This document shows, one piece after another, positions 26,571 to 34,367 of a stretch of 52,003 nt of DNA. The stretch's first letter is position 1, and each line of letters opens with the position of its first letter. This DNA comes from a virus. The notes beneath the pieces were generated by a model. It did not search any database. It was not told the DNA's origin and saw nothing but the letters and a program-made list of their open reading frames with translations. The translations under genes and the position numbers were made by a program. The DNA lies in IMG/VR virus record IMGVR_UViG_3300042261_001140, positions 1 through 52,003 of that record; one strand, 5' to 3'.

Positions 26571-26851
26571 ACAAGATGCAAGAGCTTCACCGATGGGATA
26601 TCACATGCGAAGAATATTGCATTTCCGGTGATTCCCTGGTAATCATGGACGAACTGCTAAATGAACTCACAAAGGAGAATGAAAATGTTGAATTGCGTTT
26701 CCCTCGTCGGAAATCTCGGCGCAGATCCAGAGCTTCGGAATTCGCAGAATGGGACGGCATGGACGTCTCTCAGGATGGCGGTGAACGAGTTTTACAATGG
26801 GGAGCAGAAGACCCATTGGTTCTCTCTCACGGCTTTCGGGAAGAATGCTGA
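26567..26851 (+). CDS. Doubtful small gene overlapping SSB
   Basis: Starts at a GTG overlapping the previous stop. The first 40 codons (MQELHRWDITCEEYCISGDS, then VIMDELLNELTKENENVEL) look protein-like and fill the 114-base gap before SSB, but the second half reads SSB in another frame and is Arg-rich like a shadow. Confidence 0.25.
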   Translation: MNKMQELHRWDITCEEYCISGDSLVIMDELLNELTKENENVELRFPRRKSRRRSRASEFAEWDGMDVSQDGGERVLQWGAEDPLVLSHGFREEC

Positions 26852-27173
26852 AATAATCTGCCAGTATTGCCAGAAAGGCAGCAAGATCGGAATCGTCGGA
26901 AAGCTCACGACCCGAGAATGGGAAGACAGCAATAGCGGTCAGAAAAGAACCAACGTCGAGATCAAGGTCGACCAGGTGGAGCTGCTCAATACTCAGGGGC
27001 AAGGACAGAATCAGCAGAATGGAAATTACCAGGGCAATGGCCAGCAAAATCGGAACCAGGGCCAGCAAAACAGAGGAAACCAGAATCAGAATCGCGGAAA
27101 CCAGAGACAGCAGAACAACGCACCACCCCCTCCTGACGATTTCCCACCAGCAAACGGAGACATCCCATTTTAA
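26685..27173 (+). CDS. ssb: Single-stranded DNA-binding protein
   Basis: 162 residues. LNCVSLVGNLGADPELRNS, then WFSLTAFGKNAEIICQYCQK and GKLTTREWED form the OB fold (residues 1-105). A long Gln/Asn/Gly-rich linker follows, and the end DDFPPANGDIPF is the acidic tail that recruits replication and repair partners. The start is the ATG at 26685 with AAAGGAG; an earlier ATG lacks support. It protects single strands during phage replication and works with the ERF annealing protein at 33717. Confidence 0.93.
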   Translation: MLNCVSLVGNLGADPELRNSQNGTAWTSLRMAVNEFYNGEQKTHWFSLTAFGKNAEIICQYCQKGSKIGIVGKLTTREWEDSNSGQKRTNVEIKVDQVELLNTQGQGQNQQNGNYQGNGQQNRNQGQQNRGNQNQNRGNQRQQNNAPPPPDDFPPANGDIPF

Positions 27174-27226: not shown

Positions 27227-28654
27227 ATGATCCGCCATCTTCTCCAAGCCGGATATCCGGCACTTTGCCTTGTGACGCAAGAGCCGCACAGGGCCGAAAA
27301 AGCTTTGATCTGCGAAGGGGCAACATTCTATTCATGGGACATTCTCAGCGGAATTTCCACGACCAAGGACAGCCGGCAGGTTGAGGACATCACCGACCCG
27401 GCTGATGCCATGATTTGGCTCGGAAAACAGCGAGATTCAGTCCTCATCATGCACAATGTCCACCTGCATTTCGACAGCCCCCATGTGATCCAGGCCATCC
27501 TGAACGGGACACATCTATGGAAGGGATTTGGAAACTGCCTGGTTCTCGTAAGCCCGATCTGCCAGCTCCCCGTTGAAGTCGAGAAATACTTCCACCTCAT
27601 CGATCTTCCACTCCCGAGCGTGAACGAGCTAATCGGAATCATGGAAGACATCGCTGAAGCGGCACAAATCGAGCCAAACATTCATGCTGCAATGGCGGCA
27701 AAGGGGCTCACGGAATTTGAGGCTGAAACGGCATTCGCGCTTTCTGCCGTGAAGAAACGATCACTCGATCCAAGAATCATCGCAGAAGCAAAGGCGCAGA
27801 TGATTCGGAGATCGGGGCTCATGGAATTCTGGCCTCCAGTTCCAATCACCGATGTGGGTGGTCTGGATGAGCTCAAGATGTGGCTCGGGACAAGGGCAAT
27901 GGCGTACATGCCTGGAAACGAGCATCTTCCGAAACCCAAGGGAGTCCTTCTTGTCGGGATACCTGGGACCGGGAAGAGCCTGAGTGCGAAGGCCGCGGCA
28001 TCGATTTTCGGGTGGCCACTCATCAGGCTCGACATTTCGACGCTCAAGTCCAAGTACGTCGGAGAATCTGAAAACAAGATGAAGCTCGCCATGCAGACGA
28101 TCAACGCCTTCGGTCGAGCGGTCATCTGGTGTGACGAGATCGAAAAAGCCCTCTCGGGTGCCTCAAATTCTGGAGAAACAGGGGACACAACAGGGGCTAT
28201 GCTTGGAATCCTTCTCACAGCCATGCAGGAACAGATGGAAGAATCACTCCTCATCGCGACGGCCAACAACGCGGCGAGCCTTCCAGCAGAGTTTCTTCGC
28301 AGATTCGATGAAATCTTCTTCGTTGATACACCTGGAGAGAACGAGCGGATCGACATCATCAGGATCATGAACCAGAAGTACGCGACTCAGATCCCTGAAG
28401 AAGCCGCCACAAAGCTCGAAGGATACACGGGAGCTGAAATTGAAAAGATTGCCAGGAACAGCCATTTTGACGGGCTGGAGAAGGCAATCAGCCGTGTGGT
28501 GCCGATCACGAAAACATCCAAGGAAGTGATCGAAGCACTGAGGGAATGGGCCAAATCCAGAGCGCAGCGGGCCAACGCAGAAGAGGTCCAGGCGCCGCAG
28601 GGAAGAAGGCTCAAAATGGTAATCGGAGACACGCAACCAGCCTTTGCTGAATAG
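27227..28654 (+). CDS. ycf46-like: AAA+ ATPase of the Ycf46 type
   Basis: 475 residues. Residues 1-200 match the Ycf46 N-terminal domain in style: a P-loop-like region without Walker A (IMHNVHLHFD, ILVSP-like LVLVSPICQLPVEVEKYFHL). Then a full AAA+ module: Walker A GIPGTGKS near 244-251, VGESENKMKLAMQ, Walker B IWCDEIEKA near 299, sensor ATANNAASLP near 344, Arg-finger region LRRFDEIFFVDTPG. Ycf46 proteins of cyanobacteria and plastids have this order; in several genomes they accompany Ycf35 (DUF1257) and DUF2997, and both occur downstream here (29931, 30782). Substrate unknown. Confidence 0.85.
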   Translation: MIRHLLQAGYPALCLVTQEPHRAEKALICEGATFYSWDILSGISTTKDSRQVEDITDPADAMIWLGKQRDSVLIMHNVHLHFDSPHVIQAILNGTHLWKGFGNCLVLVSPICQLPVEVEKYFHLIDLPLPSVNELIGIMEDIAEAAQIEPNIHAAMAAKGLTEFEAETAFALSAVKKRSLDPRIIAEAKAQMIRRSGLMEFWPPVPITDVGGLDELKMWLGTRAMAYMPGNEHLPKPKGVLLVGIPGTGKSLSAKAAASIFGWPLIRLDISTLKSKYVGESENKMKLAMQTINAFGRAVIWCDEIEKALSGASNSGETGDTTGAMLGILLTAMQEQMEESLLIATANNAASLPAEFLRRFDEIFFVDTPGENERIDIIRIMNQKYATQIPEEAATKLEGYTGAEIEKIARNSHFDGLEKAISRVVPITKTSKEVIEALREWAKSRAQRANAEEVQAPQGRRLKMVIGDTQPAFAE

Positions 28655-28677
28655 CACGGGCACACAGGAGGCAAAAT

Positions 28678-29211
28678 TTGATCATAGGACCAAGAGCGAT
28701 CGAACAGCTCGTTGAGGAACACGGGATGATCAGCAACACCAGGCACAATCTTCGCTGGGAAACTCTCAGCGTCGATTTGAGGCTCGGGGAGTTGCATGAG
28801 CACTTAGGTGGAGCTGTCCTGAGAAAGCAGGATCGATACATTGGGCAGACCCGCCTCATACCAGACGCCGATAAATGGTCCATCAAGCCCAGGAAATACT
28901 ACCTGGGGCGTTCGATGGAAACGGTCAAGATCCCGGTCGGGTATGTGGGACTCATCATTCCAAGAACGACTGCCGTTCGCTCTGCCCTTATGATCGAAGC
29001 CGGGATGATACCACCTGGCTTCGATGGTGAAGTGACCTTTGGGATATTCAACCCGAGTCAGGTTTTAACCCATGTCCAGAAAGGGTATTCGCTAACTACC
29101 ATGATCTTTCTCACGGCTCAGGATGCAAAATCCTACGCTGGCGTATGGTCTGGGGGTGCTCACCAATCCGAAGAAAAGGAATGGGCGCCGTCGACACAAG
29201 ACCCGAGGTAA
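28678..29211 (+). CDS. dCTP deaminase/dUTPase-fold protein, possibly inactive
   Basis: 177 residues, TTG start with AGGAGG upstream. LSVDLRLGE and GYVGLIIPRTTAVRSALMIEAG followed by FDGEVTFGIFN align by eye with the dCTP deaminase trimer fold. Two expected acidic residues are missing: the family IDPG motif reads IPPG, and the catalytic Glu of the LE.(Y/F)N motif reads Gly (TFGIFN). Motif PR-S-S is PRTT. It could be an inactive or regulatory homologue, like phage dUTPase-fold derepressors, or a diverged enzyme. Residue assignment is by eye. Confidence 0.75.
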   Translation: MIIGPRAIEQLVEEHGMISNTRHNLRWETLSVDLRLGELHEHLGGAVLRKQDRYIGQTRLIPDADKWSIKPRKYYLGRSMETVKIPVGYVGLIIPRTTAVRSALMIEAGMIPPGFDGEVTFGIFNPSQVLTHVQKGYSLTTMIFLTAQDAKSYAGVWSGGAHQSEEKEWAPSTQDPR

Positions 29212-29222
29212 AGACAGTAACC

Positions 29223-29252
29223 GGATTTTTCATCGTCTGTCGTATGTGAAAG
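29223..29252 (+). promoter_or_regulatory. Upstream motif, copy 3
   Basis: GGATTTTTCATCGTCTGTCG followed by TATGTGAAAG, 27 bases before the gene at 29279. Best match to the copy at 22123. Confidence 0.45.
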
Positions 29253-29278
29253 AACATTGAAAATGAAAAGGAGAGCAT

Positions 29279-29566
29279 ATGACGCAAAAGCAAGAACACA
29301 TCGAATTTCTTACAGAACTCTTCGTTGAGGTGATCAATGATTTGTTTTCAACAGGAATTGAAATCCTCCATTCATCGTATATGGAGAGGAAACGGATACG
29401 GATCCATATCACAGAAGATTCGCTCAGGATGATCCCAGGGGAGCTGATGCAGGAAGACCGCAAATGCCCCATCTATCCCTTCGAGGTATCCAAGTTCTTC
29501 GCAGGAGTGAAGTATTTCGCACTCACAGAGCATTCCTACATCCAGAGTGTGGAGATCGCGATATGA
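29279..29566 (+). CDS. Small early protein, unrecognised
   Basis: 95 residues. Helical start (QEHIEFLTELFVEVINDLF), then a sheet (RKRIRIHITEDSLRM). AAAAGGAG upstream of the ATG. First gene of a tightly overlapping run to 31801 that contains the DUF1257 and DUF2997 genes, so it may belong to that group. Confidence 0.55.
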   Translation: MTQKQEHIEFLTELFVEVINDLFSTGIEILHSSYMERKRIRIHITEDSLRMIPGELMQEDRKCPIYPFEVSKFFAGVKYFALTEHSYIQSVEIAI

Positions 29567-29934
29567 CATACCATGTTCCGGCAAACACGACTGCCTACAC
29601 GTTCCGAGATGGTGAAGCCTGGTTTCCACAAACCCACTGGATGCAGATACGCACAAAATACGGGAATGATTTCAACGACATGGATATTCTGTCGCACCCG
29701 AATCGAATCTGCGAAACACAGAACCCAGGAGATTACGCCGGGAAGGTGAGCATGGTCTACTCGGCTCTCGGGTATTTCATCTTCAAGCGGGATGGCTTCA
29801 TTCTGGTCGTAAATTCTGATGACGTTCGCCAAATCACACCGCAGGGGATCAAGCCTATCGAACTAATGATGGACCCCCCGGTGTTCGATCCTCAAATCCC
29901 GCCACCACCACCATTTCAGGAGATCATCATATGA
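29563..29934 (+). CDS. Small early protein, Pro-rich end
   Basis: 123 residues from the ATG at 29563, overlapping the previous stop (ATGA). Aromatic-rich start (MTYHVPANTTAYTFRDGEAW), then an IFKRDGFILVVNSDDVR sheet and a Pro-rich end (PPVFDPQIPPPPPFQE) that could bind a partner. No family recognised. Overlaps the DUF1257 gene by 4 bases. Confidence 0.55.
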   Translation: MTYHVPANTTAYTFRDGEAWFPQTHWMQIRTKYGNDFNDMDILSHPNRICETQNPGDYAGKVSMVYSALGYFIFKRDGFILVVNSDDVRQITPQGIKPIELMMDPPVFDPQIPPPPPFQEIII

Positions 29935-30356
29935 GCCACGTTGCGCCAATAGAGCTCGAAATCAGGGATCTTGAAGCGTTGAAGGATGCCTGCAAGGAAC
30001 TTGGTTTCGAGTTCGTTCAAGGCCAGGAGCAGTACAAATGGTTCGGAGTCTGGGTTGAAGATTACCCACTCCCCGAGGGATTCACGACCGACGATCTCGG
30101 AAAATGCACCCATGCTATCAGGGTTCCAGGTGCTAACTATGAAGTCGGCGTCATCGAGCGGGCCGGAAAGTTCACGCTGATGTGGGACTTTTGGGATTCA
30201 GGAGGACTTCTTGGGCCGATGGGTGGAAGATCCGGAGTCAACATGATCAGGGCTTACACGAGAGCCAAGGTCAAGCGACAGATCAGGCACAAGCGCGGTG
30301 CTAATCTCACAGAAAAGAGGCTCGAAGATCGCGTCCGCCTCACTGTAACGCTATAG
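29931..30356 (+). CDS. ycf35-like: DUF1257 protein (Ycf35-like)
   Basis: 141 residues. MSHVAPIELEIRDLEALKDA with ACKELGFEFV is the typical DUF1257/Ycf35 start (MSH...I.DLEAL...L..LG). The C-terminal half (VNMIRAYTRAKVKRQIRHKR, LTEKRLEDRVRLTV) corresponds to the conserved tail. Function unknown; in cyanobacteria and plastids it keeps company with the Ycf46 ATPase, as here (27227). The phage also encodes a DUF2997 protein three genes later, the third usual partner. Confidence 0.82.
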   Translation: MSHVAPIELEIRDLEALKDACKELGFEFVQGQEQYKWFGVWVEDYPLPEGFTTDDLGKCTHAIRVPGANYEVGVIERAGKFTLMWDFWDSGGLLGPMGGRSGVNMIRAYTRAKVKRQIRHKRGANLTEKRLEDRVRLTVTL

Positions 30357-30365
30357 GAGGAGAGG

Positions 30366-30554
30366 ATGACAGATAAGAATGTCTATCCTCTCAGGACAGC
30401 ACTCGTTCCTCAATCCTTCTGGGAAGCCTGGGACCAAATGGACGATCACCAGCGAGCGGCCGTCTTTTTCGGTGAAGTGAAGGCGCTCGAAATCAAGGTC
30501 GAAGGGCTTGAGCGCAGGATCGAAGAGATGGAGGAGGTTGTCTTCGATGAATGA
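30366..30554 (+). CDS. Small coiled-coil protein
   Basis: 62 residues. The second half (EVKALEIKVEGLERRIEEME) is a heptad coiled coil; the start (VPQSFWEAWDQMDDHQRAAV) is aromatic and acidic. Probably oligomeric. AGGAGGAGAGG ribosome site. Lies between the DUF1257 and DUF2997 genes. Confidence 0.55.
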   Translation: MTDKNVYPLRTALVPQSFWEAWDQMDDHQRAAVFFGEVKALEIKVEGLERRIEEMEEVVFDE

Positions 30555-30804
30555 GGAGGATCATGGTCAGAGAGCCAAGCGGATCATCGCGATGGCACTC
30601 AAACCTGACCCTGTGGGCGAAAAGGTTTGGGCATCCATCAAGTGCGCGGCAACCCCCTGCATCTACTGTGAAGACGATCATTGCAGGGCGTACAAGCCTG
30701 AGCTGACACTGTTCGGTGCCTATCATAAATGCGCGACCTTTTCGCGAAACATCGTATCGGCTGTGAAAAGAAAGGGGAAAGATGGAAAAGCAAATCGTGA
30801 TTGA
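30547..30804 (+). CDS. Small protein with a four-Cys cluster
   Basis: 85 residues from the ATG at 30547. IKCAATPCIYCEDDHCRAYK followed by YHKCATF gives five Cys, enough for a zinc or iron-sulphur site. Overlaps both neighbours, so translationally coupled within the DUF1257-DUF2997 run. Confidence 0.5.
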   Translation: MNEEDHGQRAKRIIAMALKPDPVGEKVWASIKCAATPCIYCEDDHCRAYKPELTLFGAYHKCATFSRNIVSAVKRKGKDGKANRD

Positions 30805-30982
30805 CATCCTCGACACCGGGGAGATCAGGATCGAAACCATTGGATTCAAAGGCGCAGAGTGCCTGAAGGAATCCGAGTTCATCGAGGAAGCTCTTGGGAA
30901 AGTCTACGGCCGCAAGCTCACGAAGGCTTTCTACATGAAGGAAGGAACGAAAGTCACAACTCACAAGCAGCTCTGCGGATAG
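30782..30982 (+). CDS. DUF2997 protein
   Basis: 66 residues. IVIDILDTGEIRIETIGFKG, AECLKESEFIEEALG and KVYGRKLTKAFY match DUF2997 (a short acidic-beta start, a conserved G-x-x-C, then a helix). The family is normally found beside DUF1257 and Ycf46-like genes, which are both present in this window. Function unknown. Confidence 0.75.
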   Translation: MEKQIVIDILDTGEIRIETIGFKGAECLKESEFIEEALGKVYGRKLTKAFYMKEGTKVTTHKQLCG

Positions 30983-30990
30983 GAAAAGAA

Positions 30991-31212
30991 ATGGCAAAGT
31001 TTCTCGATTCTTTCAAAGCGAACTTCGCCGAGATGACAAGGGCCGTCATGTCTGGAGATGTCGCACTCGTTGAATGCACCGATACGGAAACCGGGAAGCC
31101 GTGCGCGATCATCTGCACCGTGAACGTCTTCGAGGACAGGTCGGTTGAGATCGTTCCAATGGCCAGGATGTTCGACGGGAATCCTTACGAACAAATCAAT
31201 CCACCGGATTAG
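30991..31212 (+). CDS. Small early protein, DUF6117-like
   Basis: 73 residues from the ATG at 30991, with GGAAAAGAA upstream. TGKPCAIICTVNVFEDRSVE, VPMARMFDGNPYEQINPP is the pattern of a small phage family that I recall as DUF6117; no known function. An earlier in-frame start would overlap the DUF2997 gene. Confidence 0.6.
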   Translation: MAKFLDSFKANFAEMTRAVMSGDVALVECTDTETGKPCAIICTVNVFEDRSVEIVPMARMFDGNPYEQINPPD

Positions 31213-31877: not shown

Positions 31878-32765
31878 ATGAATGATCTGTTCAATGAAGC
31901 GTGCTTGATTCAGCTCGAAACGAGTGCGTGGTCTGGCGCAAAGAAGCTTCCGGAATCGGCTCTCACCAAGATCGGGGATTCCATCGATTGGCTCGGAGGG
32001 AGGAAATACCTGGTCGATCCAGAGGTTTTGAACCCGCCCAAGGCAATCATCGCCATGGCTCGGAAACTTCTCAATAAACGCTCCCTACCGTTTCCATTGA
32101 CGGGATTTTCGCTGGTTAGAAAGACCATCATCGATGACATCGAAGCCGAACTCGAAGAGCTGAAAAAGACCTTCGATGAAGCGGTTGATGTGATTGCGAT
32201 CAACTACGATTTAGCGAAGGACAGGGGACGCGAAGTCTTAGAGCCGATGGGGCTTTACAATGATTTCGACTACCCGAGAGACATCCGGACAAAATACGGT
32301 TTTGCGTGGAGATACGTCACGATCAGCACGCCGGATAACATCTCTATCCTATCGAAGGAAGTCTACGACCGGGAAGTCCAAAAAGCCCAGGAAATGATCA
32401 AAAACGCACGAGAGCTCGCAATCGAAACGCTTCACCTTGAGCTTCGCGAGCTGACACAACACATGGTCGACCGGCTCGACTACACCGATGACGGCAAAGG
32501 AAAAAAGTTCAAGGACAGCCTCGTTTCAAACTTCGATGAGTTCTTCGAGTTCTTCCAGCACAGGAATCTTTTCGATAACGAGCGGCTGAACAGCATCGTT
32601 GAAAAGGCGAAAGAGGCCATCAAAGGGGTCACGCCAAACACGCTAAGGGATGTAACGCAGGTGAGAAACGATGTCAGGTCGAAGATGGAGCAGGTGAGAA
32701 CCATCATCGACCAGAACCTCGAAAGCATCCCGAGAAGGCGAATCAGACTCGACCAGGCGGCTTAA
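31878..32765 (+). CDS. DUF3150-like protein of the recombination group
   Basis: 295 residues. Highly helical with Glu/Lys-rich segments (DDIEAELEELKKTFDEAVDV, EMIKNARELAIETLHLELRE). It resembles DUF3150, found in phages beside exonuclease and annealing genes; here those genes follow. Likely a DNA-associated accessory of recombination. AAAAAGGAGG before the ATG. Confidence 0.55.
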   Translation: MNDLFNEACLIQLETSAWSGAKKLPESALTKIGDSIDWLGGRKYLVDPEVLNPPKAIIAMARKLLNKRSLPFPLTGFSLVRKTIIDDIEAELEELKKTFDEAVDVIAINYDLAKDRGREVLEPMGLYNDFDYPRDIRTKYGFAWRYVTISTPDNISILSKEVYDREVQKAQEMIKNARELAIETLHLELRELTQHMVDRLDYTDDGKGKKFKDSLVSNFDEFFEFFQHRNLFDNERLNSIVEKAKEAIKGVTPNTLRDVTQVRNDVRSKMEQVRTIIDQNLESIPRRRIRLDQAA

Positions 32766-32784: not shown

Positions 32785-33720
32785 ATGGCCACCATCACGA
32801 ACAAATTCAAGATCCCCTCTCAGGTGGTTTCAGCAATCCTGAGAGATCCATACAAGAGGGTCGGGAACATTTCGGCGACATCGCTCATTCAATCCCCGCG
32901 GATCTTCCAGCTCAGGAAAAGGCACGAGAACGAGATCGAAGAAGACGCATCGGAAAGGATTTGGGCTCTTCTCGGGCAGATCGGCCACAAGATTCTTGAG
33001 AGGGCCGATGACACGGGGGCCATCCACGAAGAGAGGATAAGTGCCATGGTGTCGGGGTGGGAACTTTCCGGTCAGTCGGATTGCTACGTCACCCACGAAA
33101 CGGAATACGCAAAGAACGGTGATGCCACATTCAAGGAAATCAAGCCAACGATCAGGGACTACAAGTTCATCAAGGTCGTCGCCGGGAAATTCGACCATCC
33201 TGAATGGGAACAGCAGTTGAACATCCTGGCCTATCTTTGGAGGACCCAGGGCTTTGCTGTCGAGCGCCTCGAAATAGTCGCAATCTTCCGCGATTGGGGA
33301 CTTTTCCAGTACGAAAAGCAGACGAGGGAAAACCCATATCCGCCGCCGGTTAAGGTCTACAAGCAATCGCTTTGGTCGCAGGGTGAGGCTGAAATGTTCG
33401 TCAAGGCCAGGGTGAAGGCTCACCAGATGGCCGGCAAGCTTCCCGATGATCTTCTCCCTTTCTGCACTCCGGAGGAACAATGGCGCCGGGACCCAAAGTG
33501 GGCCGTCATGAGCAACCGGGTGACAAGAGCGAAAAAGCTATGCAACTCGAATGCTGAGGCCGAAAAGTTCATAAAAGACAACCATCAAAAGATCACGGGG
33601 CTATTCATCGAGTACCGGCCGGGTGTCGCTGTCAGGTGTGAATCCTACTGCGATGTGAGGAAATGGTGCAACCAGTTCGAGATGGAAACCAGAAACAAAG
33701 CAAGAGAGGAGGCCGTATGA
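32785..33720 (+). CDS. PD-(D/E)XK nuclease, Cas4/RecB-like with Cys cluster
   Basis: 311 residues. LGQIGHKILER near 70 (motif I His), LSGQSDCYV near 93 (Asp), IRDYKFIKVV near 122 (D-Y-K) and EWEQQLNILAYLW near 142 (Q-x-x-x-Y) are the RecB-type nuclease motifs. Cys residues in LPFCTPEEQW and CESYCDVRKWC near the end fit the iron-sulphur cluster of Cas4/AddB nucleases. It probably resects ends for the ERF annealing protein encoded next with a 4-base overlap, forming a Red-like pair. Confidence 0.85.
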   Translation: MATITNKFKIPSQVVSAILRDPYKRVGNISATSLIQSPRIFQLRKRHENEIEEDASERIWALLGQIGHKILERADDTGAIHEERISAMVSGWELSGQSDCYVTHETEYAKNGDATFKEIKPTIRDYKFIKVVAGKFDHPEWEQQLNILAYLWRTQGFAVERLEIVAIFRDWGLFQYEKQTRENPYPPPVKVYKQSLWSQGEAEMFVKARVKAHQMAGKLPDDLLPFCTPEEQWRRDPKWAVMSNRVTRAKKLCNSNAEAEKFIKDNHQKITGLFIEYRPGVAVRCESYCDVRKWCNQFEMETRNKAREEAV

Positions 33721-34367
33721 GCAAGGAAGGAAAAGCCGAGAAGAAGCTATTTGCAAAGCTCGCATCGGTAATGGAAGAGGTCACAAATGTTCCAAAGAAT
33801 GGCTACAACCAACACTTCAAGTATTCCTACATCACGGAAGCCGATCTTTCGGATGCAATAAGGCCGCTTCTCGCCAAACAGGGAGTCGGGCTACTCTTCG
33901 AAGTCGTGGACGTCAAACAACTCGAAAATAACATTTGCCAGGTCCAGGTATGCATCACTCTGAGCGATGATGAAACGGAGAAGAAGGTCACTGTCTTCGG
34001 TCATGGTCAGGACAAGGGAGACAAGGGCATCTACAAGGCCATGACGGGTGCAGTGAAATACTGGCTCTACAAGACGTTCCTCATTTCAACGAACGATGAT
34101 CCGGAACAAGATGAGATGGGATCTGGAAAATCGAAGGATGATAAGCCGGCAGCGGGGCAGGCAACCCAGACAAACGAGGATGAAGCCAACGCCAGAGATT
34201 GGAAGCTCTGGCAGGATCACCTGGCGAAGATGAACGATCTTCAGGATGAGGCATCGTTCAACGCCTACGTCGACCAGAATCGAGACGCAATCCAGGCGAA
34301 CAGGTACAGGGCCTACGCTGCAAAATACATCAATGAGCGGCGAAGCACATTTGGACAGGCCGCTTAG
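33717..34367 (+). CDS. erf: ERF family single-strand annealing protein
   Basis: 216 residues from the ATG at 33717, overlapping the nuclease stop. KLASVMEEVTNVPKNGYNQH, FKYSYITEADL and ALLAKQGVGLLFEV-like IRPLLAKQGVG, then GDKGIYKAMTGAVKYWLYKT are ERF family hallmarks. ERF anneals complementary single strands and supports phage recombination and circularisation. A Lys/Gln/Asp-rich linker follows near 150, then a helical C-terminal part. Confidence 0.9.
   Translation: MSKEGKAEKKLFAKLASVMEEVTNVPKNGYNQHFKYSYITEADLSDAIRPLLAKQGVGLLFEVVDVKQLENNICQVQVCITLSDDETEKKVTVFGHGQDKGDKGIYKAMTGAVKYWLYKTFLISTNDDPEQDEMGSGKSKDDKPAAGQATQTNEDEANARDWKLWQDHLAKMNDLQDEASFNAYVDQNRDAIQANRYRAYAAKYINERRSTFGQAA

What the first reader, a model, noticed from the sequence alone, without database searches (positions are those of the whole stretch)
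27227..30982. A phage-borne Ycf46 / Ycf35 (DUF1257) / DUF2997 set
The window encodes a Ycf46-type AAA+ ATPase (27227), a DUF1257 protein (29931) and a DUF2997 protein (30782) within 4 kb on one strand, with small tightly coupled genes between them. The three families are known to cluster in cyanobacteria, plastid genomes (in part) and some bacteria, but their joint function is unknown. A full set inside a temperate phage early operon, with a dUTPase-fold protein and Cys-rich small proteins, suggests a compact unit that acts on host or phage protein complexes. It could be a defence, anti-defence or takeover module.
Basis: partly seen in the sequence, partly recalled or inferred. Interest (0 to 1): 0.75.

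Follow-up and report, generated by a model that had tools for sequence, protein, structure and literature searches.

The report
Mobile four-gene AAA+ ATPase cassette
This phage carries an ATP-driven protein-remodelling enzyme with three partner proteins of unknown function, and the same four genes turn up together, even in shuffled order, in many unrelated phages and some plasmids, which points to a widespread but undescribed machine of mobile DNA.

Summary
27227-28654 is an AAA+ ATPase of Ycf46-like layout, 30782-30982 is DUF2997 (45.8 bits, cut-off 24.1), and 29931-30356 is a divergent DUF1257: Pfam misses it, but it is 43-47% identical to recognised DUF1257 proteins. They do not meet by chance. 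Of 26 IMG/VR loci fetched with a DUF1257 motif alone, 26 carry DUF2997, 24 a full-length ATPase of this family and 24 DUF3150, always on one strand, in at least five gene orders. Relatives sit in phages of several bacterial phyla, in plasmids and, with weaker support, in an archaeal virus. The dUTPase-fold gene and the Cys-rich small genes are not constant. DUF3150 is also the middle gene of MoxR-DUF3150-VWA cassettes, so DUF1257+DUF2997 occupy the place of the VWA co-chaperone. DUF3150 ends in a disordered tail with a conserved R-x-Phi-x-Phi motif, absent from the four MoxR-type DUF3150 examined; unrelated proteins beside DUF3150-less cassettes end alike. Best reading: an AAA+ remodelling machine acting on tail-tagged DUF3150 or complexes it marks, in the early (replication/recombination) region. 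The final target is unknown. No defence or anti-defence evidence was found.

The parts
27227..28654 (+). AAA+ ATPase, 475 aa, Ycf46-like layout: N-terminal region without P-loop (about 1-200) and active C-terminal AAA domain (about 235-370)
   Evidence: PF00004 83.3 bits; phrog_8638; conserved Walker A/B and Arg fingers; 35% identity over 99% to the cassette ATPase of Ca. Manganitrophus plasmids
29931..30356 (+). divergent DUF1257 (Ycf35-type) protein, 141 aa
   Evidence: 47% to annotated DUF1257 of CP114559, 43% to L054 which passes the Pfam cut-off, hhalign 93.8% with shuffle control; AF2 pLDDT 93.1
30782..30982 (+). DUF2997 protein, 66 aa, with the GxxC motif invariant in the alignment
   Evidence: PF11211 45.8 bits, cut-off 24.1; alignment
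31878..32765 (+). DUF3150 protein, 295 aa, helical core plus disordered C-terminal tail (RRRIRL) with the R-x-Phi-x-Phi motif; fourth constant member
   Evidence: PF11348 45.5 bits, cut-off 24.9; AF2 pLDDT 88, residues 286-295 below 50; R287 the only invariant column in 24 sequences
28678..29211 (+). dCTP deaminase/dUTPase-fold protein, passenger between ATPase and DUF1257
   Evidence: PF22769 64 bits, below the TIGR02274 cut-off; no relative in the other cassettes
30550..30804 (+). Cys-rich small protein (ATG at 30550 inside the longer ORF 30508-30804), passenger
   Evidence: no family hit; no relative in the other cassettes
26661..27173 (+). SSB, upstream neighbour (context)
   Evidence: PF00436 100.1 bits
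32785..33720 (+). possible PD-(D/E)XK nuclease, downstream neighbour (context)
   Evidence: PF12705 18.2 bits, below the cut-off of 22
33663..34367 (+). ERF-type single-strand annealing protein, downstream neighbour (context)
   Evidence: PF04404 65.7 bits

Best explanation
The four genes encode one ATP-driven protein-remodelling machine of mobile elements. The ATPase would be a hexameric Cdc48/Ycf46-class motor. DUF1257 and DUF2997 would form a two-protein co-chaperone in the place that VWA proteins hold for MoxR ATPases. DUF3150 would be the dedicated client or scaffold, recognised through its flexible C-terminal R-x-Phi-x-Phi tail. The machine would act early in infection, most likely on a nucleoprotein complex of phage replication or recombination. 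Shown: the families, their near-obligate co-occurrence, the permuted order, the exchange with MoxR/VWA around DUF3150, the conserved tail, active ATPase motifs, one natural DUF1257-DUF2997 fusion. Inferred: physical complex, tail recognition, direction of action. Guessed: the final target.
For: 26 loci found with a DUF1257 motif alone: DUF2997 26/26, full-length ATPase 24/26, DUF3150 24/26, one strand, at least five gene orders. No other neighbour family is constant. Nitrospirota: all 10 DUF1257 genomes lie among the 15 DUF2997 genomes of 396, P about 1e-16, ignoring relatedness. One ORF in L058 scores with both the DUF1257 and the DUF2997 profile. MoxR-DUF3150-VWA in phage MinM2, Cupriavidus, Burkholderia and pCAR1. 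Tail motif in 22/31 cassette DUF3150 against 11% of opposite-strand ORFs (P 3e-12); DUF1257 1/38 and DUF2997 0/32; 0/4 in MoxR-type DUF3150; 5/6 of the unrelated protein X in phages that have the cassette but no DUF3150, 0/4 of the genes after the ATPase in phages without DUF1257/2997; X is not homologous to DUF3150. Precedents: MoxR/VWA pairs remodel protein complexes (PMC9976466); the MuA tag RRKKAI is a C-terminal ClpX signal (PMC8138137).
Against: No experiment on any phage member was found in the library searched. Neither the DUF1257 nor the DUF3150 model has a confident PDB fold match, so fold gives no mechanism. Some cassettes on plasmids and in large phages lack DUF3150. Chromosomal DUF1257/DUF2997 sit with ferredoxin or radical-SAM genes, which hints at a redox role not explained here. 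Neighbouring recombination genes are varied, with no constant partner.
Confidence: 0.5

Rival explanations
1. Redox or metal-cofactor machine: DUF1257 and DUF2997, with conserved Cys/His residues, handle an Fe-S cluster or metal and the AAA+ motor inserts or removes it from a target protein.
For: In cyanobacteria DUF2997-ycf35 adjoin ferredoxin fed7 (PMC4284462); in P. polymyxa the cassette adjoins a Fer4_12/radical-SAM gene. DUF2997 has an invariant GxxC; DUF1257 of this clade conserves H3, C59 and H61. MoxR/VWA pairs often act in metal insertion (PMC9976466).
Against: No Fer4_12/radical-SAM relative was detected in the viral cassettes, and the C59/H61 pair is not kept in cyanobacterial-type DUF1257.
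Confidence: 0.2
2. Virion or tail assembly chaperone, as proposed for MoxR-VWA of archaeal ATV and group 2.2 jumbo phages.
For: A jumbo-phage review cites MoxR-VWA in ATV tail assembly (PMC7824862). The spindle virus ATSV has the ATPase beside a virion structural gene, with DUF1257-like and DUF2997-like genes.
Against: In the window the cassette is in the early, opposite-strand region with SSB and ERF. It also occurs on plasmids, which make no virions.
Confidence: 0.12
3. Defence, anti-defence or toxin-antitoxin unit.
For: The ATPase resembles IetA in its AAA domain. An AAA of the SpoVK/Ycf46/Vps4 group is the antitoxin of a subtilisin-like protease in SGI1 (PMC10954446).
Against: No constant protease or nuclease partner; the set is constant in elements of very different hosts.
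Confidence: 0.1
4. Chance neighbourhood of unrelated early genes.
For: Single-window view only.
Against: Co-occurrence across dozens of loci with permuted order.
Confidence: 0.01

Closest known systems
Ycf46 / Ycf35 (DUF1257) / DUF2997 of cyanobacteria and red-algal plastids
   Same: DUF2997 is shared; DUF1257 is a homologous divergent form; AAA+ with an N-terminal region lacking a P-loop. In cyanobacteria DUF2997-ycf35 are adjacent (PMC4284462).
   Different: Mobile elements bring the ATPase into the same operon and add DUF3150; no ferredoxin gene seen. Ycf46 itself was not compared directly.
MoxR-DUF3150-VWA cassettes of plasmids and phages (pCAR1 ORF100-103, conserved in R478, Rts1, SXT and R391 by PMC2642839)
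   Same: DUF3150 with an AAA+ ATPase and co-chaperone-type gene(s) in one operon on mobile DNA.
   Different: Different AAA+ family; VWA replaced by DUF1257+DUF2997; the DUF3150 tail motif is absent in the four examined.
RHph_I4-type phages (GenBank-annotated DUF1257 and DUF2997 genes)
   Same: ATPase then DUF1257 then DUF2997, one strand.
   Different: No DUF3150; an unrelated protein of about 212 aa with a similar C-terminal tail sits between.
IetAS (PADLOC)
   Same: Generic AAA domain similarity.
   Different: No subtilase partner; low score.

Membership tests
DUF2997 (PF11211) | score above the curated cut-off | tested here: met
   45.8 bits against 24.1
DUF3150 (PF11348) | score above the curated cut-off | tested here: met
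   45.5 bits against 24.9
DUF1257 (PF06868) | window protein itself above the curated cut-off | tested here: not met
   no hit; therefore called divergent DUF1257-like
DUF1257 (PF06868) | homology to proteins that pass the cut-off | tested here: met
   43% over 141 aa to L054, 22.5 bits against 22.2; hhalign 93.8% with controls
Ycf46-type AAA+ | C-terminal AAA module with Walker A, Walker B and Arg fingers | tested here: met
Ycf46-type AAA+ | N-terminal region of about 200 aa lacking a P-loop | tested here: met
   seen in alignment; its fold was not modelled
Ycf46-type AAA+ | reciprocal best match to plastid or cyanobacterial Ycf46 | not tested
   no chromosomal cyanobacterial Ycf46 was fetched
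MoxR/VWA chaperone cassette | MoxR-clade AAA+ | tested here: not met
   best matches are classical AAA: CDC48, Afg2/VCP
MoxR/VWA chaperone cassette | VWA partner gene in the cassette | tested here: not met
   no VWA family among the cassette and adjoining early proteins scanned; no such constant neighbour in other cassettes
MoxR/VWA chaperone cassette | DUF3150 in the operon | tested here: met
   L072-L074 and pCAR1
IetAS / SGI1 sgiAT-type system | subtilisin-like protease partner | tested here: not met
   none found in the cassette

The most novel reading that the evidence does not exclude
A tag-and-motor system of mobile elements: a short C-terminal R-x-Phi-x-Phi tail, carried by DUF3150 and by unrelated element proteins, is read by the DUF1257-DUF2997 pair (which almost never carries it) and delivers these proteins to a Ycf46-class AAA+ motor, a system exchangeable with MoxR-VWA and spanning bacterial phages, plasmids and perhaps archaeal viruses.
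Probability: 0.22. Interest if true: 0.85.

Novelty: new variant of a known kind. Interest (0 to 1): 0.64.

Why it matters
Ycf46, Ycf35 and DUF2997 are long-standing unknowns of plastids and cyanobacteria, and DUF3150 appears in no paper of the library searched. Finding them as a near-obligate, mobile set with a swap partner of known type (MoxR/VWA), a predicted tail signal and members in cultured phages makes their joint function directly testable in simple hosts.

Tried and rejected
Close relatives of the window ATPase or DUF1257 by single-protein scans of IMG/VR: none. DCD, Cys-rich gene, ERF, nuclease and SSB as cassette members: not constant. Protein X as a diverged DUF3150: no homology. 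Fold searches of the DUF1257 and DUF3150 models in the PDB: no match with E<=0.001. Defence library: only generic AAA. Promoter scan: no site on the + strand and no excess over shuffles.

Full report
What is there. The window is a 52,003-base IMG/VR virus record with a terminase, portal, head protease and tape measure on the minus strand, an integrase, a CI-like repressor and a 2014-aa tail fibre: a temperate tailed phage. On the plus strand, after SSB (26661-27173), lie the ATPase (27227-28654), a dCTP-deaminase/dUTPase-fold gene (28678-29211), small genes, a DUF1257-like gene (29931-30356), more small genes, DUF2997 (30782-30982), DUF6117 (31003-31212) and DUF3150 (31878-32765), followed by a possible PD-(D/E)XK nuclease and an ERF annealing protein. 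Several neighbours overlap by a few bases. A purine-rich AAAGGAA precedes the ATPase start.

The DUF1257 call. Pfam does not see 29931. A profile from eight viral DUF1257 proteins without it scores 93.8% (E 1.8e-7) over the first 80 residues or so; 60 shuffles reach at most 1.2% and the top-scoring of 106 other window ORFs about 4%. It is 47% identical to a GenBank-annotated DUF1257 of a Ca. Manganitrophus plasmid, which itself scores 19.2 bits, just under the cut-off, and 43% identical to L054, which passes it. It is therefore a divergent DUF1257 homologue. AlphaFold gives pLDDT 93 with no confident PDB match.

The set is real. Phages chosen only by ATPase similarity already show the layout ATPase - (X) - DUF1257 - DUF2997 in Rhizobium, Aeromonas and Pseudomonas phages and, without X, in Tunturiibacter phage Tunturi_3. 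In Rhodobacter RcKickapoo and Agrobacterium JP1 the DUF1257 member is seen only with the session's own profile. In archaeal ATSV both partners are seen only with such profiles (DUF1257 E 1e-4, DUF2997 E 1e-12), so that case is weaker. Plasmids of Ca. Manganitrophus, Paenibacillus, Nostoc, Trichormus and Geminocystis carry the set too. A scan of IMG/VR with the motif C[TSE]HAIx[VI]PG of DUF1257 gave 26 loci (23 after removing identical ones). Of the 26, 26 have DUF2997, 24 a full-length ATPase and 24 DUF3150, all on one strand. Orders A-1-2-3, 1-2-A-3, A-3-1-2, 3-1-2-A and 2-1-A-3 occur, so the set is held together by function, not only by shared descent. The motif selects the subclade nearest the window. 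Pfam's own DUF3150 model independently finds 12 of 22 tested records, one place each, and 0 of 14 control genomes. In 396 Nitrospirota genomes all 10 with DUF1257 are among the 15 with DUF2997, and 9 of 11 DUF1257 places adjoin a DUF2997 place (P about 1e-16, ignoring relatedness). One Nitrospirota ORF (L058) scores with both profiles, a natural fusion. Among neighbours within 9 kb no fifth family is constant: after the four, the only large cluster is an unlabelled one of 28 loci whose first sequence overlaps the DUF1257 gene in another frame and which I judge to be shadow ORFs, and the next has 7 of 42 loci.

The swap. DUF3150 also sits between a MoxR-type or generic ATP-binding gene and a VWA gene in Synechococcus phage MinM2, Cupriavidus pRK1-1, Burkholderia pBMC401 and pCAR1. 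A published map says the pCAR1 group is conserved in R478, Rts1, SXT and R391 (PMC2642839). Thus Ycf46-type ATPase + DUF1257 + DUF2997 replaces MoxR + VWA around one shared protein. VWA proteins are the co-chaperones of MoxR motors that remodel complexes (PMC9976466).

The tail. In 24 aligned DUF3150 proteins the only invariant residue is R287, in a C-terminal tail that AlphaFold leaves disordered. R-x-Phi-x-Phi occurs in the last 16 residues of 22/31 cassette DUF3150 against 11% of opposite-strand ORFs (P 3e-12), in 11/38 ATPases (P 0.007), 1/38 DUF1257 and 0/32 DUF2997. ATPase and DUF3150 tails of one element resemble each other more than shuffled pairs do (P 0.0018, not corrected for relatedness). 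The tail is absent in the four MoxR-type DUF3150, present in 5 of 6 X proteins of phages with DUF1257/2997 but no DUF3150, and absent in the 4 genes after the ATPase in phages without DUF1257/2997. X is unrelated to DUF3150. The regular expression was chosen after seeing some tails, so its P values are optimistic; the contrast between the MoxR and Ycf46 classes rests on few cases. MuA's RRKKAI is a known C-terminal ClpX signal of similar look (PMC8138137).

What it most likely does. I commit to an AAA+ remodelling machine with a DUF1257-DUF2997 co-chaperone and DUF3150 as tail-recognised client or scaffold. The early location beside SSB and ERF, and RecE, RecT, Sak4, YqaJ, RadC and DnaC-like neighbours in other elements, favour a DNA-related target, but none is constant. 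Literature on the cellular proteins is thin: three papers mention DUF1257 or DUF2997, none DUF3150, and loss of Ycf46 lowers carbonic anhydrase EcaB activity in Synechocystis (Jiang et al. 2015 as cited in PMC7496141). That library holds open-licence papers only, so absence there is not proof of absence.

Noticed in passing
window 28678-29211: dCTP-deaminase/dUTPase-fold protein that fails the TIGR02274 cut-off (63.1 against 92.8 bits); may be a diverged phage enzyme.
   Followed up: partly
window 31003-31212: DUF6117 protein (43.2 bits, cut-off 27) just after DUF2997.
   Followed up: no
L007:1045-1636 (MH319720, marine virus AG-345-D19): DUF2997 then DUF1257 in the reverse order, with a cyanobacterial-type DUF1257: probably a separate, host-derived acquisition.
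   Followed up: partly
L017:4285-6515 (Acidianus tailed spindle virus): Archaeal virus with ATPase followed by DUF1257-like and DUF2997-like genes.
   Followed up: partly
L024:8275-8856 and L021:5345-5953: Fer4_12/radical-SAM gene beside the ATPase on Paenibacillus and Treponema plasmids; in Treponema next to a phage-like baseplate gene.
   Followed up: partly
L087:8868-9395, L091:7127-7597, L094:8880-9404: Protein between DUF2997 and DUF3150 with C-x-C...C-x-H (SWIM-like by eye), ending in LRVITLD, like the DUF3150 tail of the same element.
   Followed up: partly
L018:8825-11428, L048, L052, L054: Protein of about 860 aa ending in RKIR plus a few residues, like the DUF3150 tail of the same element.
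   Followed up: partly
L100:8001-12675: Two DUF1257-DUF2997 pairs around one ATPase and no DUF3150 found.
   Followed up: no
L025:8663-9549: DUF3150 of a Ca. Manganitrophus plasmid is split in two overlapping frames, while the copy on CP114559 is intact.
   Followed up: no
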